From the IMG/VR virus record IMGVR_UViG_3300046385_000041, positions 1-60,150 of that record: a stretch of DNA of 60,150 bases. One strand, written 5' to 3'. The position numbers and the translations under genes are program-made. Positions 11,666 to 50,258 of this stretch are shown here, one piece after another (the stretch's first letter is position 1; each line of letters opens with the position of its first letter). The notes beneath the pieces were generated by a model. That model saw only the letters and a list, made by a program, of their open reading frames with translations, was not told the origin of the DNA and searched no databases. Source of the DNA: a virus.

Positions 11666-13210
11666 ATGTCAGACGCTATAGTCAAAAATTTAAGCTTCGG
11701 AAAAGAAGCAAGCGACAAAGTGTTCGCTGGAATAGAAAAGCTAGCTAAAGCAGTTAGCTCTACGTTAGGGGCAAGCGGTAAGTGTGTTCTTTTAGAAGAC
11801 GCTGCTGGAAGACCTGTAATTACAAAAGATGGTGTATCAGTTGCAGATTCAATTATTTTGTTAGATCCTGTTGAAAATATGGGTGCAACATTATTAAAAG
11901 AGGCAGCTAGAAAAACAGTTAGAGAAGCAGGAGATGGAACAACAACCGCTACAGTATTAGCGCATTCAATTTTAAAGAATGCTTATGCTGTTGAAAATCC
12001 TAATGCCAGAGAAATTAAAGAAGGAATCAATACAGGTATTGAAAATGTAATTAAGTACCTTGATAGCGTATCAATAAAGGTTGATGATAAAATGCTTGAT
12101 CAAATAGCCACTATATCAACTAATAATGATCCTGAATTAGGTAAGTTAGTTGGAGATGCTTTCAGATCAGTAGGTAACACGGGAATTGTTATGATGGAAA
12201 CATCAGTAGAGCCTGATTGTAGCTTACAAGTAGTTGAAGGTGTTCAATGTGATATGGGATTAACTAATACGCATTTCATTACCAATCAAAAAAATAAAAC
12301 AGCAGAATTAGATAATCCATTAGTATTACTAGTTGAATCTCCAATTGAAAGCATAAGACAAATTCAATCAGTATTAGAGTTTGTTATAAAGAATAATAAA
12401 TCATTACTTATTATTGCTGATTTAGATCAAACGGTATTGTCAGCATTGGCAATGAACAAATCAAAAGGTAACATAAAAGTAAACGTTATCAACGCGCCAA
12501 CATACGGAATTAATAGAAAAGAGATCTTTGACGATCTTGCTTTATTGACAGGTGCTACATTAATAAACGAAGACTTAGGTGACGACTTAGATTTAATACA
12601 GCCAGAATTATTAGGTTCATGTATTAAGAGTGTTACAAACCACGAAGAGACTATCCTACACGTCGGTGAAACTAAGCCGGAAGTTTTGGAAATTATTGAT
12701 GAAGTTAAAAAGTCATTGACTGAAAACTTACAAAGTAATACTGTAATTAAACTAGAAAAAAGATTAGCGCGTTTAACAGCTAAAATAGCTATTGTTAAAG
12801 TTGGAGCTAACTCAGAAATAGAATTAAAAGAAAAAGCAGATAGAATTGAAGATGCAATCTGCGCAACAAAAGCCGCTATTAAAGAAGGTATTGTTCCAGG
12901 AGGAGGTATTGCATTATTAAATGCATCATATAATGTAGACGCTAAAACATTAGGCGAAGAAATATTATTAGATTCAATTAGAGCACCATTTAATACTATA
13001 TTAGAGAATGCTGGTATTGATGTTGTTTCATTAGATCCGGTATCTAAAACAGGTTATGGTCTTAATGTAATAACAAACAAGACTGTTAATATGATTGAAG
13101 CTGGTATTATTGATCCGTTATTAGTTACTAAAAGCGCTTTAAGAAATGCTGGATCAGTAGCTACAACAATTCTGTCAACTGATTGCGTAATCAATAATAT
13201 GAGAATGTAA
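11666..13210 (+). CDS. groEL: Phage chaperonin, GroEL-like
   Basis: A 514-residue group I chaperonin. ATPase features are intact: KDGVSVA at residues 54-60, DGTTTATVLA with Asp90 (Asp87 of E. coli GroEL), the catalytic Asp in RIEDAICATKAAI, and VPGGG. The apical domain is more diverged than the equatorial one. The C-terminus stops at DCVINNMRM and lacks the GGM-rich tail of bacterial GroEL, which lines the chamber floor. It is coupled to the co-chaperonin by a TAATG overlap. Placed between lysis and packaging genes, it probably helps fold capsid or other virion proteins. A phage gene, not host contamination, given its flanks. Confidence 0.93.
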   Translation: MSDAIVKNLSFGKEASDKVFAGIEKLAKAVSSTLGASGKCVLLEDAAGRPVITKDGVSVADSIILLDPVENMGATLLKEAARKTVREAGDGTTTATVLAHSILKNAYAVENPNAREIKEGINTGIENVIKYLDSVSIKVDDKMLDQIATISTNNDPELGKLVGDAFRSVGNTGIVMMETSVEPDCSLQVVEGVQCDMGLTNTHFITNQKNKTAELDNPLVLLVESPIESIRQIQSVLEFVIKNNKSLLIIADLDQTVLSALAMNKSKGNIKVNVINAPTYGINRKEIFDDLALLTGATLINEDLGDDLDLIQPELLGSCIKSVTNHEETILHVGETKPEVLEIIDEVKKSLTENLQSNTVIKLEKRLARLTAKIAIVKVGANSEIELKEKADRIEDAICATKAAIKEGIVPGGGIALLNASYNVDAKTLGEEILLDSIRAPFNTILENAGIDVVSLDPVSKTGYGLNVITNKTVNMIEAGIIDPLLVTKSALRNAGSVATTILSTDCVINNMRM

Positions 13211-16081: not shown

Positions 16082-16309
16082 ATGGAAGCAGTTATTAGGA
16101 AGATAAGTATTGGTACGGACTATAAGAACGAGGCAATGCACTATTCCATCGGACAACAAGTGTACGGAGGTCATGAGATTGCTTATATAAAGTCAGATCA
16201 AATTGATTCTTCTTATAACATTTATATAAAAAAAGGAGACGAAGTTATGCCTTGGAAAAAATTTAATTCCAACATGGCCATCTCTGTGGAATACGATTTG
16301 GAATATTAA
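16082..16309 (+). CDS. Small hypothetical protein
   Basis: A 75-residue protein with alternating strands (MEAVIRKISIGTDYKNEAMHYS, then HEIAYIKSDQIDSSYNIYIKK) suggesting a small beta fold. Its stop overlaps the start of the tandem GroES-like gene by one base (TAATG). Function unknown. Confidence 0.55.
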   Translation: MEAVIRKISIGTDYKNEAMHYSIGQQVYGGHEIAYIKSDQIDSSYNIYIKKGDEVMPWKKFNSNMAISVEYDLEY

Positions 16310-16917
16310 TGAAAAGTGTATTTAATTTTATCGTTAAGCCTGTTGGTGAAAGATACGATAATAAAATTAAAGTAGGAGACAAAGAGCTTATACTAAATAC
16401 TAAAATAGAAAGTTTTAAATCTGTGAATAACTTAGCGGAGGTAATATCTACCCCGCTAGCTTATTCAACTGACATAAAAGTTGGTGATATTATTGTTATA
16501 CATCATAATGTTTTTAGAAGATTCTATGACATTAGAGGTAATCAAAAGAATAGTAGAGCTTTTTTTATGGATGATTTATACTTCTGTGATTTAGACCAAA
16601 TTTATTTATATAAGTCTGATGACAAATGGAAGACATTTGGTGACAGATGTTTTATAAAGCCATTAAAAAATAATGACCATTTAAAGCTTGATAAAGAACA
16701 AAAGCTTATTGGTATATTAAAATACGGAAATAACTCCTTAGAAGCGATGAAAATCAACAAAGGAGATCTTGTAGGTTATACTCCTTATGGTGAATTTGAT
16801 TTTATCATAGAAGGGGAGCGCCTTTATTGTATGAAATCTAATGATATTGTAATTAAGTATGAACGTAAAGGAGACGAAGCAATCTATAATCCAAGCTGGG
16901 CACAAAGCGGTTCTTGA
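16309..16917 (+). CDS. Tandem GroES-like co-chaperonin candidate
   Basis: A 202-residue protein in which two halves each look like a GroES fold. The first runs FIVKPVGERYDNKI, NLAEVISTP, then DIKVGDIIVIHHNVFRRFYD. The second has KLIGILKYGN, INKGDLVGYTPYGEFDF and IIEGERLYCMKSNDIVIKYE, the order seen in the C-terminal half of GroES. No mobile loop is obvious. If correct, this is a second co-chaperonin-like gene, immediately before the terminase genes, besides the GroEL-linked one. It could instead be a structural beta-barrel protein; confirmation needs a profile search or model. Confidence 0.55.
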   Translation: MKSVFNFIVKPVGERYDNKIKVGDKELILNTKIESFKSVNNLAEVISTPLAYSTDIKVGDIIVIHHNVFRRFYDIRGNQKNSRAFFMDDLYFCDLDQIYLYKSDDKWKTFGDRCFIKPLKNNDHLKLDKEQKLIGILKYGNNSLEAMKINKGDLVGYTPYGEFDFIIEGERLYCMKSNDIVIKYERKGDEAIYNPSWAQSGS

Positions 16918-27487: not shown

Positions 27488-30400
27488 ATGATAGAAATTA
27501 AAAATAATTTTCTAGCATCTAAAATGAATAAAGACATTGACGATAGGCTATTACCAAAAAACCAATATAGGAATGCGGTAAATCTTGAAATCAATAGATC
27601 TGAAAATTCAGATGCGGGAACAGTACAAAATATATTAGGTAATGTCTTGGCGTTGAATGGTAACTTTAGAAGCATCACAAACACTAATGACTTAGACTGT
27701 ATAGGTGCTTACGCGGATCCATCGAATGATACATTGTATATATTCTTGACAAACAATGTTAATAGTAATTACAATAAGCTTGCTAAGAATTTTATATATT
27801 CTTATAATGCGCTTGCACAGCAATCTACATTATTAGTTCAAGGTGCTTTTTTAAACTTTTCAAAAAATTCACCAGTAATTGGTATCAACGTATTAGAAAA
27901 CTTTTTATTCTGGACGGATAATAGAAATCAACCCAGAAAAATAAACATTACAAAAGCTTTAGCAAATTCAGCATATTATACCATAGAGGAACAAATATCT
28001 GTAGCAAAGCCAAACCCATTGCAACCACCATTCTTATATAAAGAAAGTACAAAAACCGGTTCACCATCAGCACCTAAGTACGAAACTACAATGTACAATG
28101 TTGCTGACGCTCTATTGCCTACTGGGCAAACCAATCCATACTATGATGCAGATTATATTGGAGACGCTGCTTATCTTGAAGACAAGTTTGTTAGATTTAG
28201 TTATAGATACAAATTTGAGGACGGCGAGTATTCAATTATTGCGCCATTCACACAAATAGCATATATACCAAGACAAGATGGATACTTTATGTATACACCG
28301 CCAGCATCACCAGGTGGAGAACCTGTAAAAGATGACGAAACAGCCGCGTATAGATCTACTATTGTAAACTTTATGCAGAACAAAGTTGATCAAGTAAAAT
28401 TACAAATTGATCTACCGACACCTGCTAATCAATTGCTTTCTACGCTTAAAATAGCTGAAATAGAAATACTATATAAGGATGCAAACGAAGTAGCGGTAAG
28501 TGTTATAGATTCTATATCTACCACATCGTTCACTACTGGTACTACAGTATACGAATACGTATATGATTCCAAAAAACCATATAAGACATTACCAACAAAG
28601 GATCTAATCCGTGTTAATGATATAGTTCCAATAAAAGCATTAGGGCAAGAAATTATAAGCAATAGAGTTGTTTATAGTAATTACCAGAACAAAGCATCAT
28701 ATCCAAAGTATCTTAATTATAACGTTGGGGTTGGTAATAAAAGTTCTTTTATAAACAGAACTAGTAGAACTAGTAAAATAGAATATCCAAATCATTCCGT
28801 AAAACAGAATAGAAATTATCAAGTTGGTATTATACTTGGTGACAAGTTTGGTAGAGAGTCAGGCGTTATATTGTCTGACGCTATTACATCTATTGACGCA
28901 AGACAGTTTGGAGCATCATCTTTATATTTTGGATATAGAGATGCAACAAAAACAGCTCCTTCTAATTATCCTGGATCTGCGTTAAAAGTTCTTTTTAATA
29001 ACAAGATTGATAATGGACCAGCCGGATGGCCTGGTTTGTATAATGGTGATCCAACTAGTGATAACTATAATCCACTTGGTTGGTATTCATATAAGATTGT
29101 TGTAAAACAAACGGAACAGGATTACTACAATGTATACTTGCCCGGGTTTATGGCAGCATACCCAGACAACCAAACATTAGAGCTAGGTAAGACGTCGCAC
29201 ATAGTATTAATTAACGACAATATAAACAAAGTACCAAGAGACTTAACGGAGGTTGGACCTGCTCAATTGCAATTTAGAAGTAGTGCGGTTTTATATCCTA
29301 GAGTAAATAATAATACTGCAGCGTATAATAACCAACAGTTTTACCCAGGTAATACATATTCATTAGCTAGCACAATTGCGACTAATAATTCTTTGTTTTT
29401 TCCTAATAACGTTTTGCCTACCTCTCCAAATGCTGGATTTAATCAATTTTATCAATTAAATTCAGATCCGCTTATAGCTAGGCTAGCAACACCATCATTA
29501 CTTGGAGTAATATCTACAAGCAATGTTATAAATTTATCTGTTGCAGAAACAAAGCCGTTTGATTCTAAATTAGATATATATTGGGAGACTTCAACTTGTG
29601 GTATTATATCAGAGTTAAACACTTTAATAGACCAAGGCGTTGCGGGGGCAACAGAGATGACTAGTGAAACAGGTGTGCTATTAGAAAGTAAACCTAATAC
29701 TTCGTCTACGCAGGTTATTAACAGCATGCGTTTTTACGATGACTTAGGTAACCCTGTTTTATTAAGTGATGAAGAGGTAGAATTAACATCAGTCGTTAAT
29801 GCTGCTGGTGATAATATAACAAGCAAGTTTGCGTTACAAAACACAGCTACAGATGGTGTATTTCAAATTATAGCTAATACATCAAGTTATTTTACTTATC
29901 AATTGCCACTTACAAAAAATCAATATAAGTTCAATGTAAGGAGTAGTAGTGGTATACCTTTAGAAGTTGTGGATTACGAAGTTGATATGACACTTACAAA
30001 TGTTGTACCAACAATAACATATCCGGCTTCTGGAACAGTATTTACTTTTAATGAAGATATAGGCACACAAATAGTTACAACATTCTCCGGAGTAAACGGA
30101 TCAGCAGATACTGCTAATAACCAATTAGACTTAAGTTGGTCTTTGGTTGGCGCGGACTCAAACTTTTCAATATCTAGCGGAGGTGTATTAACTGCCAATA
30201 CAAACGGATTAGCTCCTAATGATTATAGTGTAACAGTTAGATTATCTGATGCTGGAGCATCGGTTACAAGATCAATTACAGTTAGGATAGCAGAGGTTCC
30301 GGCTTTATATATGTTGTCTGGTGGATCTAGCGGAGCTTCATTTACATATTATGATGCAACCAATACAGCACAATATGCTGAATTAGGACCTGGAGTTACA

Positions 30401-30718
30401 ATAGCTAGATGTATGTTTGGTTCATCAAAACCAGCATCTGCAACATATATAAGTCCTTGTACTACTATTCCAACGGGATGTGCGATATTCACATTAAGCG
30501 GTGGATCAAGCGGAAGATCATTTACATTTACGCCAATTGGAGAATCGGTTACAACATTAAATGTTCCAGCGAATGCATCGACAACATTAAGAATACAAAC
30601 ACCGTATAATACGATTGGAGCATTACAAAAAACAGGTACAGTACAAGGCGGAGAAACCTGCCCTACTAACGCTGACTATGCTAGATCTGATTATTCATTA
30701 TTCGATTATTTCACTTAA
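27488..30718 (+). CDS. Large tail muzzle / nozzle protein with Ig-like domain
   Basis: A 1076-residue tail protein. The start (FLASKMNKDIDDRLLPKNQYRNAVNLE) is typical of the propeller-forming nozzle or muzzle protein of crAss-like podoviruses, and long strand-rich regions follow. At about residues 830-935 an Ig/cadherin-like domain is inserted (GTVFTFNEDIGTQIV ... APNDYSVTVRLSDAGASV). The end has two related LSGGSSG(A/R)SFT repeats near 941 and 1001. The propeller seems to be completed by the 489-residue protein at 31247. It probably closes the tail and binds fibres. Confidence 0.7.
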   Translation: MIEIKNNFLASKMNKDIDDRLLPKNQYRNAVNLEINRSENSDAGTVQNILGNVLALNGNFRSITNTNDLDCIGAYADPSNDTLYIFLTNNVNSNYNKLAKNFIYSYNALAQQSTLLVQGAFLNFSKNSPVIGINVLENFLFWTDNRNQPRKINITKALANSAYYTIEEQISVAKPNPLQPPFLYKESTKTGSPSAPKYETTMYNVADALLPTGQTNPYYDADYIGDAAYLEDKFVRFSYRYKFEDGEYSIIAPFTQIAYIPRQDGYFMYTPPASPGGEPVKDDETAAYRSTIVNFMQNKVDQVKLQIDLPTPANQLLSTLKIAEIEILYKDANEVAVSVIDSISTTSFTTGTTVYEYVYDSKKPYKTLPTKDLIRVNDIVPIKALGQEIISNRVVYSNYQNKASYPKYLNYNVGVGNKSSFINRTSRTSKIEYPNHSVKQNRNYQVGIILGDKFGRESGVILSDAITSIDARQFGASSLYFGYRDATKTAPSNYPGSALKVLFNNKIDNGPAGWPGLYNGDPTSDNYNPLGWYSYKIVVKQTEQDYYNVYLPGFMAAYPDNQTLELGKTSHIVLINDNINKVPRDLTEVGPAQLQFRSSAVLYPRVNNNTAAYNNQQFYPGNTYSLASTIATNNSLFFPNNVLPTSPNAGFNQFYQLNSDPLIARLATPSLLGVISTSNVINLSVAETKPFDSKLDIYWETSTCGIISELNTLIDQGVAGATEMTSETGVLLESKPNTSSTQVINSMRFYDDLGNPVLLSDEEVELTSVVNAAGDNITSKFALQNTATDGVFQIIANTSSYFTYQLPLTKNQYKFNVRSSSGIPLEVVDYEVDMTLTNVVPTITYPASGTVFTFNEDIGTQIVTTFSGVNGSADTANNQLDLSWSLVGADSNFSISSGGVLTANTNGLAPNDYSVTVRLSDAGASVTRSITVRIAEVPALYMLSGGSSGASFTYYDATNTAQYAELGPGVTIARCMFGSSKPASATYISPCTTIPTGCAIFTLSGGSSGRSFTFTPIGESVTTLNVPANASTTLRIQTPYNTIGALQKTGTVQGGETCPTNADYARSDYSLFDYFT

Positions 30719-43843: not shown

Positions 43844-45562
43844 CTAGCCATCGCAGCTCAGGCACCCTTCATCCATTGCTTTAGCAGCTAAGTCACCACG
43901 TAAAACAGATTCAGTACGCATATAATACAAAGTTTTAATTCCTTTTTTCCATGCATCCATGTGAACTTTATTAATCCACTTTGGTGTCGCTTCATTTGGA
44001 AAAGCTAAATTTAAACTAACGGATTGATCAATATATTGTTGTCTGATACCTGCTTGATTAACCAATTCTAACTGATTGATCTCTTTAAACGTTTTGAAAA
44101 CATCTTTAGCCGGTATGTCGTGATTAAACATAATATCATCGAGCTCGTCAATATCTTGAACAGAACCTCCATCAGCCAATATTTTTGCCCAAATTTCATC
44201 TGTATTAATTTTATGTTTTTTTAATAGTTTTACTAAGCTTGGATTTTTTCGAATGAAAGTACCTTTTGCACTTTGCTCGGTAAATACGTTAGCAGCCCAT
44301 GGCTCAATACCTGAAGATACGTTCCCACTAAGCTTACTATTGCTGACAGTAGGAGCAATGGCGCGAAGATGGGTATTACGCATACCAGTACCAACGCACC
44401 ATAAAGGTTCGCCATAAACTTCTGCAAGCGCTTTACTGGCTCGTTCGCTTTCAATTTTGAGTTGACTAAAGATTTTCCTTGTTTCATACTGTGCAAGCAA
44501 TCCTTCGAAGGGCAATCCTTTTTCTTGCAGGTATGTGTGCCATCCCAACACTCCAAGTCCAAGAGGCCTTCCCTTACTAGCCGATCTAACCGCATTTTCA
44601 AAGCCTCGTAATCCTTTTGCTCTTTGGATGAATTCTTCCATGACTCCGTCGAGAAACCAGATTGCGTCATAGATGAGGTTTGTGTCTTTCCATTCTTCAT
44701 ATTTTGCTAAATTTAATGATGATAAACAACATACAAAGCTATGTGTTTCATCGGTGTGTAATGTTATTTCACTGCATATATTAGTCATGTGTACTTTTAA
44801 CCCATGAGTTCTATAAGCTTGTGGATTTGATTTGTTTGTGTTTCCTTTAAACAAGACATAAGGTTCACCAGTTGCTTTACGTTTTCTGATAAGGGCACTC
44901 CACTTATCCCTTGCCTCATTATCTCCTTGTTCAAGCTTTCGCATGAATTTATCACCGACAACAACGCATTGATGTAAATTAAGAGATTGTCTGTTGACAT
45001 CGCCTTTTGGTTCTCTAATTTCAAGCCATTCCTTAAAATCTCCGTGTTCAATGTTGATATTAACAGAAGCTGCTCCTCTACGGACTGAGCCTTGGTTAGT
45101 TGCGAGGATAGTTGAGTCATATATTTTGCAGAAAGGTACAACTCCATCTGATGTTCCATTGCCTGTTATTTTAGCGCCAGCGGGTCTTATTTGATTAACT
45201 CCGATACCAACTCCACCGCCATGCTTAGCGAGTAGCATCATCTCTAAATTCTTTTGTCCAATATCTTGAATGCTGTCCGCAACATCAATACCAAAACAAC
45301 TGATTGGTAATCCACGATCCGTTCCTGTGTTTGATAATACAGGTGAAGCTAAACATAACCATCCATTCCAAATATATTCAAAAAACTTATCTGCTAATTC
45401 TGGTTTGTATAATCTTTTAGCAACAGTTGATGCAACGCGCATATAGGCGTCTTTTGGTGTTTCCCAAGGTAATAGATACCCTCCGGCAATTGTCTTCTTA
45501 TATACGTCCGTATTGGCCCAAACAGGGTAATCAACCCCAGGTTGCCATTCATTATTCCACAT
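43844..45562 (-). CDS. nrdA: Class I ribonucleotide reductase, large (alpha) subunit
   Basis: A 572-residue catalytic subunit that reduces ribonucleotides to deoxyribonucleotides. Active-site residues are present: Cys89 in LPISCFG, Asn261-Cys263-Glu265 in TNICSEI, a Cys pair at 278-279 (VCCLSSLNLA), and the C-terminal CLSC (567, 570) that is re-reduced by thioredoxin or glutaredoxin. It starts directly in the catalytic region and lacks the N-terminal ATP-cone of host NrdA, so it should escape dATP feedback inhibition. Its start overlaps the 68-residue gene upstream. The beta subunit lies at 45809. Confidence 0.93.
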   Translation of the reverse strand: MWNNEWQPGVDYPVWANTDVYKKTIAGGYLLPWETPKDAYMRVASTVAKRLYKPELADKFFEYIWNGWLCLASPVLSNTGTDRGLPISCFGIDVADSIQDIGQKNLEMMLLAKHGGGVGIGVNQIRPAGAKITGNGTSDGVVPFCKIYDSTILATNQGSVRRGAASVNINIEHGDFKEWLEIREPKGDVNRQSLNLHQCVVVGDKFMRKLEQGDNEARDKWSALIRKRKATGEPYVLFKGNTNKSNPQAYRTHGLKVHMTNICSEITLHTDETHSFVCCLSSLNLAKYEEWKDTNLIYDAIWFLDGVMEEFIQRAKGLRGFENAVRSASKGRPLGLGVLGWHTYLQEKGLPFEGLLAQYETRKIFSQLKIESERASKALAEVYGEPLWCVGTGMRNTHLRAIAPTVSNSKLSGNVSSGIEPWAANVFTEQSAKGTFIRKNPSLVKLLKKHKINTDEIWAKILADGGSVQDIDELDDIMFNHDIPAKDVFKTFKEINQLELVNQAGIRQQYIDQSVSLNLAFPNEATPKWINKVHMDAWKKGIKTLYYMRTESVLRGDLAAKAMDEGCLSCDG

Positions 45563-45758
45563 TCAAACCTCCTTCTTCTGCTTTTGCTTTTTCTGTCAAC
45601 TCTTTAATAGCTTCTTCGTAACCCGGCATCAATTTAATTGTGCTTAATGTTCCAACTGCTAAATTAGTTAAATGTTGTTGCTCATCCATAACGCCTTGCA
45701 TTACTCTAATCATTGCATCAACTCTGTTTTTCATTTCAATTAATGTTTGTTCTTTCAT
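45552..45758 (-). CDS. Small helical protein between nrdB and nrdA
   Basis: A 68-residue helical protein (MIRVMQGVMDEQQHLTNLAVG ... EEAIKELTEKAKAEEGG) preceded by the A/T leader. It overlaps the nrdA start by 11 bases. Family unknown; the location suggests co-expression with the reductase and possibly a regulatory or glutaredoxin-independent accessory role, but there is no Cys motif. Confidence 0.6.
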   Translation of the reverse strand: MKEQTLIEMKNRVDAMIRVMQGVMDEQQHLTNLAVGTLSTIKLMPGYEEAIKELTEKAKAEEGGLNVE

Positions 45759-45808
45759 TTTATTTAATTTTAATTACCATATATCTTATAATAGCCTGTC
45801 TACTTATA

Positions 45809-46783
45809 TTAATCACCCCAGATGTCTTCAAAATCTTCTCCTTCGTTTGCTTTACTGTAATCAGTAGGTCTAATAGCAAAGAAATCCGTATGTGTTACAC
45901 CGCCTGTTAAGTGATAGAACCAATCTAAATTTGATGCTGCCTCTTTATTAAATGGGAAATAAGATCCCAAATCTAAATAACCAAGCTCAACTAATTTTTC
46001 GTTTGTTCTTTTCTTTATGAACTGTATTAAGTCGTAAGATTTGATACCTTCAATTTCTCCAGCTTCAAACATCTTATCAATATACTTAATCTCTAATTCA
46101 ACCATTGTTTCTGCAGCTGTTATAACATCTTGTCTGCAATTTTCTAATAACGTAGGATCTTCTTCACACATGTGACGGAATAATTGGCATCCCATCTTAC
46201 TGTGCAGTGATTCATCACGTACGCTCCATTTCATTTGTTGCCCGATGCCTTTAAGTAAATTCCTTAATTGAAAAGAATATAATACAGCGAAAGCAGAATA
46301 AAGACTAACCCCTTCAGCGAAAGCGCTAAATACAGCAAGAGAGCGCCCAATATCAACTGTACTCCTACCTTCTGTTGCAACCAGGTTAGCAAACCTTTCA
46401 GCCGTTGCAGGCTCGTGTAAAAAAGCTTTGAAATCATCTAATCCTAATGTTTCATTTAAATAACTATATGCTACAGCGTGAATAGTTTCTTGAGAACCAA
46501 ACAGCATTGCCATTTGTTGTATCTCATGCTTAGGAAACCATTTAACCACACTTTGTGTCCAGTAATCTGATACCGCGCACTCTGTCTGAGCGAAACCTAG
46601 CAGGATATTACCTACTAGATTCTTTTCAGACTCGCTTAGCTTTTCATTCCAGTCTTTCACATCGCCAGACATACTGATCTCTGTATGCAACCAAAATGCT
46701 TGAGCTTGCTTTAACCAACCTTCTGTGTAGTATATAGGGAATTCAAACGGTTTGTACTCAATTCTTTTGTCAAATAATCCCAT
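45809..46783 (-). CDS. nrdB: Class I ribonucleotide reductase, small (beta) subunit
   Basis: A 324-residue radical-generating subunit. Metal ligands align with E. coli NrdB: Glu and His in SQETIHAVAY, Glu in AEGVSLYSAF, and Glu and His in RDESLHSK. The tyrosine four residues after the first His (radical Tyr122 in E. coli) is kept. The first ligand, Asp84 in E. coli, is Glu here (QTECAVSDYW), at the same 31-residue spacing. The C-terminal tail (GEDFEDIWGD) is the acidic end that docks on NrdA. It works with the NrdA at 43844. Confidence 0.92.
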   Translation of the reverse strand: MGLFDKRIEYKPFEFPIYYTEGWLKQAQAFWLHTEISMSGDVKDWNEKLSESEKNLVGNILLGFAQTECAVSDYWTQSVVKWFPKHEIQQMAMLFGSQETIHAVAYSYLNETLGLDDFKAFLHEPATAERFANLVATEGRSTVDIGRSLAVFSAFAEGVSLYSAFAVLYSFQLRNLLKGIGQQMKWSVRDESLHSKMGCQLFRHMCEEDPTLLENCRQDVITAAETMVELEIKYIDKMFEAGEIEGIKSYDLIQFIKKRTNEKLVELGYLDLGSYFPFNKEAASNLDWFYHLTGGVTHTDFFAIRPTDYSKANEGEDFEDIWGD

Positions 46784-47151: not shown

Positions 47152-47748
47152 TTATAACTTATTATATTTAAGTTTTTCTATAGCTACTTTGCGATTTGAT
47201 TTTCTTTTATTTGTATATGATAAATCTATAATGCCATTTAGCCGTTTTATAGTGCTTTTACAAATACCAGTAGACCGATTGCATTCCGCTATAGAGCAAT
47301 ATTCAATTCCTTCCCAAACAACTTTTTTCCTAGCGGGTTGGGATATTTTGTTTTGCAATATAGAATTTTTAGTATGTTTCATACCGACTCTTTTTTTATG
47401 CCCATTTTGAGGCATATTTTTACCTTTATTAGGATGATGTTTGCCATACATTGGATTTTTAGAACCAACTCTGTTATAAGGTTTATTAATACAATTACCG
47501 CCACCTTCGCATACATTGGTTAAATTTTTTAATCCTATTAAATCTATTAAAATTTCCTCGATAGTATAAGCTTGTTCCTCTGATAGATTATCAATTAATT
47601 TAATAACTTCCCAATTTGGATATTTATTTATAGTATTATTCCAATGGAGATTCCTATGGGCTTTAGAATATGCTCTTTTTCCGCACCCTTTGCCTATATA
47701 AAAAATCCCGTTTTCATTAACATGCATGTATATATAATATTTACCCAT
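47152..47748 (-). CDS. GIY-YIG homing endonuclease
   Basis: A 198-residue endonuclease. The GIY-YIG module is at the start (YYIYMHVNENGIFYIGKG) with an Arg and a Glu (YTIEEILIDLIG) at the usual distances. Residues ~95-115 (KNPMYGKHHPNKGKN) are a NUMOD3 DNA-binding repeat, and the C-terminus (SIAECNRSTGICKSTIKRL) is a helix-turn-helix/NUMOD1-type module. Free-standing phage enzymes of this kind cut an unoccupied site and spread by repair. It sits between reductase-related small genes and a resolvase-like gene; no intron is visible around it. Confidence 0.88.
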   Translation of the reverse strand: MGKYYIYMHVNENGIFYIGKGCGKRAYSKAHRNLHWNNTINKYPNWEVIKLIDNLSEEQAYTIEEILIDLIGLKNLTNVCEGGGNCINKPYNRVGSKNPMYGKHHPNKGKNMPQNGHKKRVGMKHTKNSILQNKISQPARKKVVWEGIEYCSIAECNRSTGICKSTIKRLNGIIDLSYTNKRKSNRKVAIEKLKYNKL

Positions 47749-47785: not shown

Positions 47786-48253
47786 TCACTCGTTTGTACT
47801 ACCTTTTACTTTATTAATATAATTTTTTATTATACGAATTGCTTCATCACACTCTACTTGCGACTGCGGTTTTAATAATAATCTACCAGGGTCATTCTTA
47901 CGTACCCAATCTTTAAATAATTTATATCTTAACGGAAAACTTTCATTAGCCCTTCCTTTTGTTTCGCAAGTCCACCCATCACCTTCAAAGTCTGGCGTAT
48001 ATTTAATGCCTAATATTTTTTTATTCCCTCTATCTATAAACTCTCCTTTTCCGTTAGATTGCCTTTCAATAGAACTACTATTGAACAGGAATGTGTCTAA
48101 CAATTGATATGTTTTGCCTTCGTATTTAAAATCAATACCAGCATCTTTCAATGCCTTGTACATATACTTTTCAAGTCCGGAAGCAAAGGTTATGCCGTCA
48201 TACATAACCTTTTTTGCTACTACCGGCCCTTTCTTTCTGCTAATTTTCTTCAT
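47786..48253 (-). CDS. PD-(D/E)XK nuclease, resolvase-like
   Basis: A 155-residue nuclease with Glu28 (SGLEKYMYKAL), Asp88 (YTPDFEG) and Glu97-Thr-Lys99 (CETKG), the spacing of PD-(D/E)XK enzymes such as T7 endonuclease I and phage Holliday-junction resolvase-like proteins. The N-terminus is basic. It would cut branched DNA before packaging or degrade host DNA. It overlaps the upstream gene by 14 bases. Confidence 0.72.
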   Translation of the reverse strand: MKKISRKKGPVVAKKVMYDGITFASGLEKYMYKALKDAGIDFKYEGKTYQLLDTFLFNSSSIERQSNGKGEFIDRGNKKILGIKYTPDFEGDGWTCETKGRANESFPLRYKLFKDWVRKNDPGRLLLKPQSQVECDEAIRIIKNYINKVKGSTNE

Positions 48254-48545
48254 CTATTGTATATGAGAAACCATTAGCCTCCGTCCATTTTTCAGCGTCT
48301 TTAACATCTATTTTTAAAAGCTCTAATTCTTCTTTTATATTAGTAACTTCTTCTTTAAGACGTTGAACATATAAGACGGCATCCATTAATTCTTCTTGGA
48401 AATGATTAAGCCAAGTGTGCATATCTGATTTGTCATCGCGTAATGTTTTACCATACTTTGCAAATCCAACATCCGATCTTGATACAAATTTGTCTACTAC
48501 ATTTTCAACAACCGGATCTCTAAATATTATTTCTTTCTTTGTCAT
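48240..48545 (-). CDS. All-alpha NTP pyrophosphohydrolase-like protein
   Basis: A 101-residue helical protein. GFAKYGKTLRDD followed by WLNHFQEELMDAVLYVQRLKEE is the pattern of small phage dNTP diphosphohydrolases of the MazG-like superfamily (EExxD metal-binding helix). A charged coiled coil follows. It would hydrolyse a dNTP to dNMP and pyrophosphate; the substrate cannot be read from sequence. Its start abuts the MazG stop. Confidence 0.6.
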   Translation of the reverse strand: MTKKEIIFRDPVVENVVDKFVSRSDVGFAKYGKTLRDDKSDMHTWLNHFQEELMDAVLYVQRLKEEVTNIKEELELLKIDVKDAEKWTEANGFSYTIDEEN

Positions 48546-49483
48546 TACAATGTACTATTAAATGTGTTTGTTGTGCTGCCTTTTGCTGTATTAGTTAGCC
48601 CAGTGTAATAAGCATGTCTAGCCTGAGTAACATTATTTTTAACAAACGTACCATTTTGCATCGATCCTTTTCTATTCTTAATTTCATCATAAGCTGCATC
48701 AATACACTCCTCAACTTTAAACCCTAATAGATATGCTAAGTTAGTTAATACAACAATTGAATCACCAATACCATCTTTTTGTTCTTCTTTATTGCCATTA
48801 AGAATAGCTTTAGATAATTCACCAACTTCCTCAATAAGCTTTACAAATTGTGTTTTAGGATCGCCACTGGCATATATGCCTCTTTCTTGCGCCCAAGACC
48901 TAATTTCTTTAAATCTATTAGTTTTTTTGCTAGTTTTTTCTTTAAATTCAATTTGTTGTTTTGGTAAAGTAGCAATTAATCTATTGTCTACCGTTGCATT
49001 TGTTGGCAATAATTTTAAGTATTCACTTAATGCTTTATTATAAACGTACGATCTATTAGGATTGTACATCGATGTTCTTACATTTGTCATGATCCAATCT
49101 ACAATAGTAGGAGTCAATTTAAAATTTCCATAAGGAGAAGTAATTATTTCCCCAATGTTGTCCATAAGCTGCCCTTTTAATTTACTTACAGGGCATGCAA
49201 ATGTAATTGTTTGTTCTGTTACGTTTGTTTCCATTTTATTTAATTTAAGTTTATTCATTAATTCTTTATAGGAATGCAAGTCTATCTTATAGCCGTAGAG
49301 TAATTGAAGCTCTGCCTCCTTTGCTGATATATAATCTATATCTTCGCTAGAGTCCAGAACTTCGTATTCGGATGGCTGGTACCCTTGTTGTACCGTAATT
49401 CTATTATTAAGATTACGTGTAACTCCTATCTTTTTCCCTAATATATGGTAAATATAAAACATTCTTTTGAATTTACACTGCAA
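48545..49483 (-). CDS. mazG: MazG-type nucleotide pyrophosphohydrolase with N-terminal GIY-YIG-like segment
   Basis: A 312-residue reading frame. The C-terminal part (about 195-290) is MazG: FVKLIEEVGELSKAIL, then KDGIGDSIVVLTNLAYLLG, with the EExxE and ExxD metal-binding pattern. The first ~80 residues (FYIYHILGKKIGVTRNLNNR ... AKEAELQLLYGYK) look like a shortened GIY-YIG module. A strong A/T leader lies just before an internal ATG at 49234 (METNVTEQ), so a 229-residue MazG without the nuclease part may be the main product. The 5' end overlaps the thymidylate-synthase-like gene by 11 bases. MazG enzymes hydrolyse NTPs or (d)NTPs. Confidence 0.78.
   Translation of the reverse strand: MQCKFKRMFYIYHILGKKIGVTRNLNNRITVQQGYQPSEYEVLDSSEDIDYISAKEAELQLLYGYKIDLHSYKELMNKLKLNKMETNVTEQTITFACPVSKLKGQLMDNIGEIITSPYGNFKLTPTIVDWIMTNVRTSMYNPNRSYVYNKALSEYLKLLPTNATVDNRLIATLPKQQIEFKEKTSKKTNRFKEIRSWAQERGIYASGDPKTQFVKLIEEVGELSKAILNGNKEEQKDGIGDSIVVLTNLAYLLGFKVEECIDAAYDEIKNRKGSMQNGTFVKNNVTQARHAYYTGLTNTAKGSTTNTFNSTL
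49235..49250 (-). promoter_or_regulatory. Translation leader for an internal MazG start
   Basis: Read on the minus strand, the bases before the ATG at 49234 form a CTTAAATTAAATAAAA leader, matching the window's other translation leaders. It lies inside the longer frame that begins at 49483, and so marks a likely independent start for the MazG part. Confidence 0.55.
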
Positions 49484-50258
49484 CTGCAGCAGTTATTTTT
49501 GGCCCGTGTTGATAATTTTTTATTTCCAACTTTCCATCTTTATAAGTATACTCTGGAGATAAGAATGTTTCTTGTTCTAAATACTGTTTTACAGTATTAA
49601 TTTGATTCTTATAAATGTGGGCATCAATTATTTGCATTTCAAGTCTAGATGCTTTATATCCTGTTTGTTCTGCAATATATAATTGTATTTGAGCAAACAA
49701 AGCAACATCATAAGGTATACCTAATAACACATCTCCCGATCTTTGAACAACAAACATATTCAATTCATCACCTTCAACAAAGAATTGAAAATATAAATAA
49801 CAAGGTGGCAATGCCATCTCTTCAAGTTGTAATGGATTCCATAAACTAATAATGTGTCTTCTGCTGTCTGGAGTCGTTTTAAGGTTGTTTATAAGGATCG
49901 CAAGTTGATCATAATATTCACCATTGAAATTCCTTAATTGATGCCCATAAACAGGCCCTAAATCTCCATTCTCATCTGCCCAAGCATCCCAAATTTTAAT
50001 GCCATTATCTTGAAACCTTTTTATATTTGTTTCGCCGTTAATAAACCAATCAAACTCTGTCTTAAATGTTTTTTCAAACATCTTTCTACCGGTTAATAAA
50101 GGAAAACCCTCTTTAAGATCTATCTTCAAACTTTCATTGAATAATGAATAAGATCCAACACCTGTTCTGTCGTTTCTGAAATGACCCATACTTAATATAT
50201 CTTTTAATATATTTCTGTATTGGTATTCATAACTACTCATTCTTTTTGTACTTTTCAT
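49473..50258 (-). CDS. Thymidylate-synthase-fold enzyme, probably dCMP-specific (hydroxymethylase or methylase)
   Basis: A 261-residue enzyme of the ThyA family; an in-frame ATG at 50315 would add 19 residues, and MSSYEYQYRN at 50240 best matches usual ThyA starts. Conserved: NDRTGVGS, WFINGETN, WADENGDLGPVYG, catalytic Cys153 (LPPCYLYFQF), QRSGDVLLG, DAHIYKNQ and the C-terminal AAVAV. Where ThyA has PFN (Asn177 in E. coli, reads the uracil 4-oxo group), this protein has PYD with Asp184. Asp here marks T4-type dCMP hydroxymethylases, and Asn-to-Asp changes ThyA to dCMP use. It would make a 5-modified dCMP with tetrahydrofolate as carbon donor. MazG-like genes are adjacent. Confidence 0.82.
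   Translation of the reverse strand: MKSTKRMSSYEYQYRNILKDILSMGHFRNDRTGVGSYSLFNESLKIDLKEGFPLLTGRKMFEKTFKTEFDWFINGETNIKRFQDNGIKIWDAWADENGDLGPVYGHQLRNFNGEYYDQLAILINNLKTTPDSRRHIISLWNPLQLEEMALPPCYLYFQFFVEGDELNMFVVQRSGDVLLGIPYDVALFAQIQLYIAEQTGYKASRLEMQIIDAHIYKNQINTVKQYLEQETFLSPEYTYKDGKLEIKNYQHGPKITAAVAV

What the first reader, a model, noticed from the sequence alone, without database searches (positions are those of the whole stretch)
49473..50258. ThyA-fold enzyme with the dUMP-specific Asn replaced by Asp: probable dCMP hydroxymethylase or methylase
Seen: all ThyA landmarks are present (LPPCYLYFQF, QRSGDVLLG, DAHIYKNQ, AAVAV), but PFN becomes PYD, with Asp at 49707-49709. Established: Asn177 of E. 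coli ThyA (Asn229 in L. casei) reads the dUMP base; Asn-to-Asp converts ThyA to dCMP use, and T4 dCMP hydroxymethylase has Asp there. Inference: the phage makes 5-hydroxymethyl- or 5-methyl-dCMP, so its DNA may carry modified cytosine as defence against host restriction.
Basis: partly seen in the sequence, partly recalled or inferred. Interest (0 to 1): 0.85.

Follow-up and report, generated by a model that had tools for sequence, protein, structure and literature searches.

The report
Phage thymidylate synthase retuned to dCMP
A bacterial virus carries a thymidylate synthase whose base-reading residue is changed so that it should methylate dCMP instead of dUMP, and a conserved partner gene next to it probably supplies the dCMP, so the virus likely builds its DNA with 5-methylcytosine to escape host restriction enzymes.

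Summary
ORF 49473-50258(-) is a full-length PF00303 enzyme with Asp184 (codon 49707-49709) at the position of E. coli ThyA Asn177. All 80 closest viral relatives keep this Asp, plus Tyr in place of His147. Use of dCMP rather than dUMP is therefore well supported by inference. The product can be narrowed. The published hydroxymethylase signature (Asp/Glu three residues before the catalytic Cys, Ser/Thr two before the Tyr, no C-terminal tail) is not met: the protein has Leu, Pro and a ThyA tail (AAVAV). I predict a dCMP methylase making 5-methyl-dCMP, a natural counterpart of the engineered N177D/N229D mutants. The next gene is a MazG-type pyrophosphohydrolase, probably the dCMP supplier. Searching back from that gene, 73 of 79 loci have an adjacent TS-family gene, all 73 with the Asp: 9 of this type, 15 of a His147 type, 49 with the T4-like hydroxymethylase signature. 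Close relatives thus swap methylase-like for hydroxymethylase-like enzymes beside one partner. A restriction-site avoidance test fits DNA protection in the window's own lineage, but a second lineage with the same genes contradicts it. No enzyme activity or DNA base analysis exists.

The parts
49473..50258 (-). ThyA-family enzyme with Asp at the dUMP-reading position; predicted dCMP methylase
   Evidence: PF00303 266 bits; AlphaFold model pLDDT 93, best PDB match E. coli ThyA TM 0.92; D184 in 81/81 relatives
49707..49709 (-). Asp184 codon (E. coli ThyA N177, T4 gp42 D179)
   Evidence: sequence read, alignment
49800..49802 (-). catalytic Cys153 codon
   Evidence: alignment to E. coli C146 and T4 C148
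49797..49799 (-). Tyr154 codon (E. coli H147), one of the two positions tied to cytosine-modified phage DNA in PMC8670742
   Evidence: 81/81 Tyr
49809..49811 (-). Leu150 codon, three before the Cys; Asp/Glu in hydroxymethylases
   Evidence: rule from PMC6400193
49953..49955 (-). Pro102 codon, two before the active-site Tyr; Ser/Thr in dCMP hydroxymethylases
   Evidence: rule from PMC6400193
49473..49490 (-). ThyA-type C-terminal tail AAVAV and stop, absent in T4 gp42
48545..49462 (-). MazG-domain pyrophosphohydrolase, likely start ATG 49462 (listed ORF extends to TTG 49483); proposed dCTP-to-dCMP supplier
   Evidence: PF03819 24.1 bits vs cut-off 22; same-strand neighbour in 81/81 loci; catalytic E218 E219 E222 D237 D241 invariant; MazG/dCTPase folds are the best, weak structural matches
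48240..48545 (-). 101-aa protein of unknown function, same operon, matched in 52 of 81 loci
   Evidence: PHROG 11184 and others, unknown function
45809..46783 (-). ribonucleotide reductase small chain
   Evidence: PF00268
43844..45562 (-). ribonucleotide reductase large chain
   Evidence: PF02867/PF00317

Best explanation
The gene encodes a dCMP C5-methylase: a thymidylate synthase in all but the base-reading residue and a few neighbours. Proposed steps: ribonucleotide reductase feeds the dCTP pool; the adjacent MazG protein cuts dCTP to dCMP plus pyrophosphate, which both removes normal dCTP and makes the substrate; Asp184 binds and protonates cytosine N3; Cys153 attacks C6; methylene-THF gives its carbon to C5; hydride transfer from THF (ThyA-type, tail closed) reduces it to methyl, giving 5-methyl-dCMP and dihydrofolate; kinases raise it to 5-methyl-dCTP, and a polymerase inserts it so that virion DNA carries 5-methylcytosine and resists many restriction enzymes. 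Shown here: the residue, the fold, the fixed gene pair, the absence of the hydroxymethylase signature. Inferred: every reaction, the MazG substrate, the kinase, the polymerase and the modified DNA.
For: Asp at N177 in 81/81 and Tyr at H147 in 81/81. Published mutants: N-to-D at this site makes ThyA produce 5-methyl-dCMP (as cited in PMC8670742), and positions 177 and 147 are the top two tied to cytosine-modified phage DNA. Leu150, Pro102 and tail are ThyA-type, whereas hydroxymethylation needs Asp/Glu at -3 and even D145N abolishes it in T4 (PMC6400193); the dUMP hydroxymethylase of 5hmdU phage SP8 also has Asp at -3. The model matches ThyA, TM 0.92. The TS gene of AXL1, same genus as the all-5mC phage Xp12, also has PYD, no Asp at -3 (Asn), and a MazG gene beside it. 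MazG partner: 81/81 loci, and in reverse 73/79 with Asp in 73/73. In 50 related records there is one TS gene each (copied in a terminal repeat of G041); with the window included there is no ThyX and no dCMP deaminase, so it is unlikely to be a dTMP route. Phage MazG-like enzymes that make the monophosphate for a base-modifying enzyme are known (MazZ, PMC8342488). Avoided C-containing palindromes in 3/51 phages of the window's lineage versus 25/28 related phages without the gene.
Against: No activity or base analysis. Sister phages carry signature-bearing hydroxymethylases in the same slot, so the lineage can live with 5hmC, and the -3 rule rests on few characterised enzymes. No dihydrofolate reductase or thymidylate-kinase-type gene was found in the related records, so host enzymes would have to serve. 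A second phage lineage with the same gene pair strongly avoids GATC, CATG and CTAG, so the pair does not by itself remove restriction pressure.
Confidence: 0.72

Rival explanations
1. It is a dCMP hydroxymethylase that reached the activity by a different route from T4 gp42, so the DNA carries 5-hydroxymethylcytosine.
For: Same Asp as T4 gp42; 49 sister loci have gp42-like enzymes with Asp at -3 beside the same MazG partner, including a phage whose terminase is 90% identical to the window's (G032/L103).
Against: Leu at -3, Pro at -2, ThyA tail and Trp80/Trp83 kept in the relatives; no GT1 or GT2 glycosyltransferase to decorate a hydroxyl in the related records, though none in the hydroxymethylase-type ones either.
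Confidence: 0.17
2. It remains a thymidylate synthase for dUMP; the Asp is tolerated.
For: ThyA scaffold otherwise intact; no other ThyA- or ThyX-type thymidylate synthase in the record.
Against: Asp fixed in 81/81 together with loss of His147; Asn-to-Asp is known to switch specificity; 73/73 enzymes beside the MazG partner have it.
Confidence: 0.06
3. It makes 5-methyl-dCMP only as an intermediate that a deaminase turns into dTMP, so the role is thymidylate supply, not DNA modification.
For: AP013540, with the same residues, has a dCMP deaminase next door.
Against: No dCMP deaminase in the window or any of 50 related records; the hydroxymethylase-type enzymes in the same slot could not make dTMP.
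Confidence: 0.04

Closest known systems
Engineered ThyA N177D (E. coli) / N229D (L. casei) dCMP methylases
   Same: ThyA scaffold, Asp at the base-reading position, ThyA-type -3 Leu, Pro and tail
   Different: Natural, with further fixed changes (His147Tyr, Phe176Tyr, Cys168Gly/Ala, His212Gln mostly) and a MazG partner
TS-family enzyme of the Xp12 genus (Bosavirus AXL1; Xp12 DNA is all 5mC)
   Same: PYD motif, no Asp/Glu at -3, MazG-type gene adjacent
   Different: 27% identity, separate clade, Asn at -3, no ThyA tail, MazG protein not alignable by BLAST; neighbours include DHFR and dCMP deaminase. Xp12's own gene was not in the collection.
T4 gp42 dCMP hydroxymethylase
   Same: Asp at the base-reading position, catalytic Cys, fold family
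   Different: 23% identity; Asp145, Ser94 and missing tail of gp42 are not shared
MetaGPA cytosine-modified contigs (PMC8670742)
   Same: Asp177 and changed 147 in TS genes linked to modified C; co-occurring pyrophosphohydrolase domains
   Different: That study does not split methylases from hydroxymethylases (its selection protects both) nor describe this phage lineage
MazZ of cyanophage S-2L (PMC8342488)
   Same: MazG-like phage enzyme supplying the monophosphate to a base-modifying enzyme
   Different: (d)GTP-specific, works with PurZ; substrate of the window protein unknown

Membership tests
ThyA fold family (PF00303) | significant match over the domain, catalytic Cys and Arg | tested here: met
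   266 bits vs 24.3 cut-off; C153, R173 invariant
dUMP thymidylate synthase | Asn at E. coli 177 | tested here: not met
   Asp in 81/81
T4-type dCMP hydroxymethylase | Asp at the base-reading position | tested here: met
   D184 aligns with T4 D179
T4-type dCMP hydroxymethylase | Asp/Glu three residues before catalytic Cys | tested here: not met
   Leu150; T4 and SP8 have Asp, type-C sister loci DTPC
T4-type dCMP hydroxymethylase | Ser/Thr two residues before the active-site Tyr | tested here: not met
   Pro102
T4-type dCMP hydroxymethylase | no ThyA C-terminal tail | tested here: not met
   ends AAVAV
T4-type dCMP hydroxymethylase | branches with gp42 | tested here: not met
   query within type-A clade 100/99, set apart from type C; gp42 itself on a very long branch
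dCMP methylase (functional class) | Asp177 on a scaffold without the hydroxymethylase signature | tested here: met
dCMP methylase (functional class) | forms 5-methyl-dCMP from dCMP | not testable with these tools
   needs enzyme assay
Xp12-genus TS homologues | same clade | tested here: not met
   27% identity, separate branch
MazG pyrophosphohydrolase (neighbour) | PF03819 over cut-off and invariant metal-binding acids | tested here: met
   24.1 vs 22 bits; E218 E219 E222 D237 D241 invariant
dCTPase (neighbour) | dCTP to dCMP activity | not testable with these tools
   inferred from partnership only

The most novel reading that the evidence does not exclude
One lineage of 60-kb phages of probable Bacteroidota hosts exchanges two chemically different cytosine-modifying enzymes (ThyA-derived dCMP methylases and gp42-like hydroxymethylases) in one gene slot beside a single dedicated dCTP pyrophosphohydrolase, so that near-sister phages have genomes fully built with 5mC or with bare 5hmC.
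Probability: 0.45. Interest if true: 0.75.

Novelty: new variant of a known kind. Interest (0 to 1): 0.58.

Why it matters
Whole-genome replacement of cytosine by 5-methylcytosine is known from very few phages (Xp12 and kin). If this is right, the route is common in aquatic Bacteroidota phages and rests on a near-minimal change of thymidylate synthase, which gives natural enzymes for the classic Asn/Asp specificity question. The interchange with hydroxymethylases beside one partner allows a clean comparison of what 5mC and 5hmC buy against restriction and against modification-dependent nucleases. It also gives a three-feature rule for sorting 'thymidylate synthases' that are annotated alike in phage genomes.

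Tried and rejected
Glycosyltransferase (PF00535, PF00534), DHFR (PF00186), ThyX (PF02511), dCMP deaminase (PF00383) and thymidylate kinase (PF02223) searches over the related records, meant to separate methyl from hydroxymethyl by their helpers: none found in any class, so no discrimination. Xp12's own genome (MT664984) is not in the collection; AXL1 and PaMx28 were used instead. Restriction-site avoidance looked decisive (3/51 vs 25/28) until all type-A loci were tested: 26 of 75 avoid sites, nearly all of them in a second phage lineage with a RecA-like gene and another terminase, so it is reported only as lineage-level support. One apparent exception (L319: GATC 0/36) is the first 20 kb of a 93-kb record with unlike composition; the DNA around its TS gene shows no avoidance. 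The number of independent origins of Asp177 could not be settled: the tree is unrooted, Asn177 sampling is thin and T4 gp42 and SP8 sit on very long branches. The Hardy and Nalivaika 1992 paper is not held; its result is cited through PMC8670742.

Full report
OBSERVATION. The window is a 60,150-base IMG/VR virus record. ORF 49473-50258 on the minus strand is a complete 261-aa member of PF00303 (266 bits), the only one in the record. Asp184 is encoded at 49707-49709 and aligns with E. coli ThyA Asn177 and T4 gp42 Asp179. A close-relative search, whose patterns did not include this residue, returned 80 viral loci at 56-99% identity; with the query, 81 of 81 have Asp there, 81 of 81 have Tyr at His147, 81 of 81 have Gly/Ala at Cys168, and every catalytic residue that I checked is kept. 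Nearly all of the next relatives read, ordinary phage and bacterial thymidylate synthases at about 40-44% identity, have Asn; the exception is the Mediterranean phage AP013540, with Asp and Tyr147.

SUBSTRATE. The Asn/Asp position sets dUMP versus dCMP use, and Asn-to-Asp mutants of ThyA make 5-methyl-dCMP (literature as cited in PMC8670742). The same paper found positions 177 and 147 to be the two most strongly tied to cytosine-modified phage DNA in metagenomes; the window protein is changed at both. This makes dCMP use very likely, though it has not been tested.

PRODUCT. The ternary structure of T4 dCMP hydroxymethylase (PMC6400193) gives a signature for hydroxymethylation: Asp or Glu three residues before the catalytic Cys (Asp145; D145N makes no product), Ser or Thr two residues before the active-site Tyr, and no ThyA-type C-terminal tail. 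I read these directly. T4 gp42: DFMC, SNY, no tail. SP8 dUMP hydroxymethylase: DRPC. Window: LPPC, PVY, tail AAVAV. The AlphaFold model (pLDDT 93) matches E. coli ThyA best (TM 0.92). The window enzyme therefore fails the hydroxymethylase test in three features and has the form of a dCMP methylase. The TS homologues of AXL1 and PaMx28, relatives of phage Xp12 whose DNA has 5-methylcytosine for every cytosine (PMC9206674), also have PYD and Asn, not Asp, at -3, which agrees with a methylase reading of 'Asp177 without Asp at -3'. Xp12's own gene could not be read here.

PARTNER GENE. Ten bases after the TS stop, assuming the ATG at 49462, lies a protein with a C-terminal MazG domain (PF03819). 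It is the same-strand neighbour in 81 of 81 loci, with invariant metal-binding acids. Its model matches MazG and dCTPase structures weakly. Searching back from this gene gave 79 loci: 73 have a TS-family gene beside it, 73 of 73 with Asp at 177; four of the other six are cut at a contig end and two have none nearby. The 73 fall into three types: A, as in the window (LPPCY, PYD, ThyA tail; 9); B (LPPCH, PYD, ThyA-like tail; 15); C (DTPCT, GFCND, no tail; 49), which carries the Asp at -3. A tree gives A, B and the Asn177 enzymes as separate groups (100/99 each) and C as another (87/90). Fifty of 51 records, spanning A, B and C, share a terminase 72-100% identical to the window's; one type-C phage has a 90% identical terminase. 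So the same phage lineage uses methylase-like or hydroxymethylase-like enzymes beside one partner. The common denominator is dCMP, and the partner is best read as the enzyme that makes dCMP from dCTP, by analogy with T4 gp56 (own knowledge and record annotation) and with MazZ of S-2L, which makes dGMP for PurZ (PMC8342488). Its substrate is inferred.

WHAT IS MISSING. Among 50 related records, and the window where included, no DHFR, GT1 or GT2 glycosyltransferase, ThyX, dCMP deaminase or thymidylate-kinase-type gene was found, and each record has one TS gene. The lack of a deaminase argues against a detour to dTMP. The lack of glycosyltransferases means the base, methyl or hydroxymethyl, is probably left bare. 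No DNA polymerase or 5-methyl-dCMP kinase was recognised among the ORFs examined in the window, so host enzymes would have to act, or the genes are unrecognised or missing from the record.

FOOTPRINT ON THE GENOME. If cytosine is modified, selection against restriction sites should relax. In 20 kb per record, strong avoidance of C-containing 4-bp palindromes occurs in 3 of 51 phages with the TS gene (types A, B, C) and in 25 of 28 terminase-related phages that lack it (for absence); A/T-only palindromes are not avoided in either set. These groups are not independent: the controls are two sister branches (like MW202828, 64% terminase identity, and the Flavobacterium elemo phages, 45%). Testing every type-A locus showed a second phage lineage with the same TS-MazG pair that avoids GATC (pooled observed/expected 0.10) and CATG (0.09). 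Recent gain of the genes, partial substitution, or hosts whose enzymes ignore 5-methylcytosine could explain it. Known 5mC DNA still falls to some enzymes: Xp12 DNA resisted 196 of 218 (PMC7653180). I count the footprint as mild support only.

COMPARISON AND NOVELTY. What it works like: the engineered Asn-to-Asp ThyA mutants and, by inference, the Xp12 enzyme. What it is: a ThyA-family protein in its own clade, not a member of the T4 gp42 group by the tested features, and not of the Xp12-genus clade. Asp177 TS genes in modified phages are already reported as a class (PMC8670742), so this is not a new kind of system. The sorting into methylase-like and hydroxymethylase-like types within one lineage, with one dedicated partner, was not found in the papers searched; the library is open-access only. 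Host: two relatives lie in contigs of Bacteroidota MAGs and the named kin infect Flavobacterium and Cellulophaga, so a Bacteroidota host is likely.

CONFIDENCE. dCMP substrate about 0.9; methyl rather than hydroxymethyl about 0.8 given dCMP; virion DNA largely 5mC about 0.6.

Noticed in passing
43844-46783; L003-L047 type-A loci: The window has class I ribonucleotide reductase genes (both chains seen in 15 of 81 loci); 33 loci have instead a ~622-aa single-chain reductase that looks like class II. The reductase is swapped while the TS-MazG pair stays.
   Followed up: partly
L184-L295 (MW202828-like and elemo-like phages): Extreme avoidance of restriction palindromes (for example GATC 0 of 88 expected, CATG 0 of 83 in L184) in phages of sister branches that lack the TS gene; a few (L240, L248) lack both the gene and the avoidance.
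   Followed up: partly
L035-L038, L045, L048-L053, L058-L081: A second phage lineage (RecA-like gene, ~403-aa terminase) carries the same TS-MazG pair yet strongly avoids GATC and CATG; unexplained.
   Followed up: partly
MW202828 58958-59632: The nearest named relative found by terminase (64% identity) is annotated with a FAD-dependent thymidylate synthase (ThyX) instead of a ThyA-type gene.
   Followed up: no
48545-49462 N-terminal part: The MazG protein has a conserved N-terminal stretch (YIYHILGKKIGVTRNLNNR) that resembles a GIY-YIG motif by eye; no family search hit it.
   Followed up: no
11666-13210 and 16309-16917: Phage-encoded GroEL (PHROG 5725) and a weak Cpn10-like match below cut-off.
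   Followed up: no
47152-47748: ORF between the operon and the reductase genes that resembles a GIY-YIG homing endonuclease by eye; not searched further.
   Followed up: no
27488-30718: N-terminal match to the crAssvirus muzzle protein family (PF25731), a structural link to crAss-like phages.
   Followed up: no
L319 (first 20 kb of the 93-kb record that holds L060): Composition unlike the phage part (GATC 0 of 36, CGCG-rich); the record may join two replicons.
   Followed up: partly
L099 1664-3685 (AP013540): A Mediterranean autographivirus has NTP pyrophosphohydrolase, dTMP-kinase-like, Asp177/Tyr147 TS and dCMP deaminase genes in a row, a second lineage with the same TS residues.
   Followed up: partly
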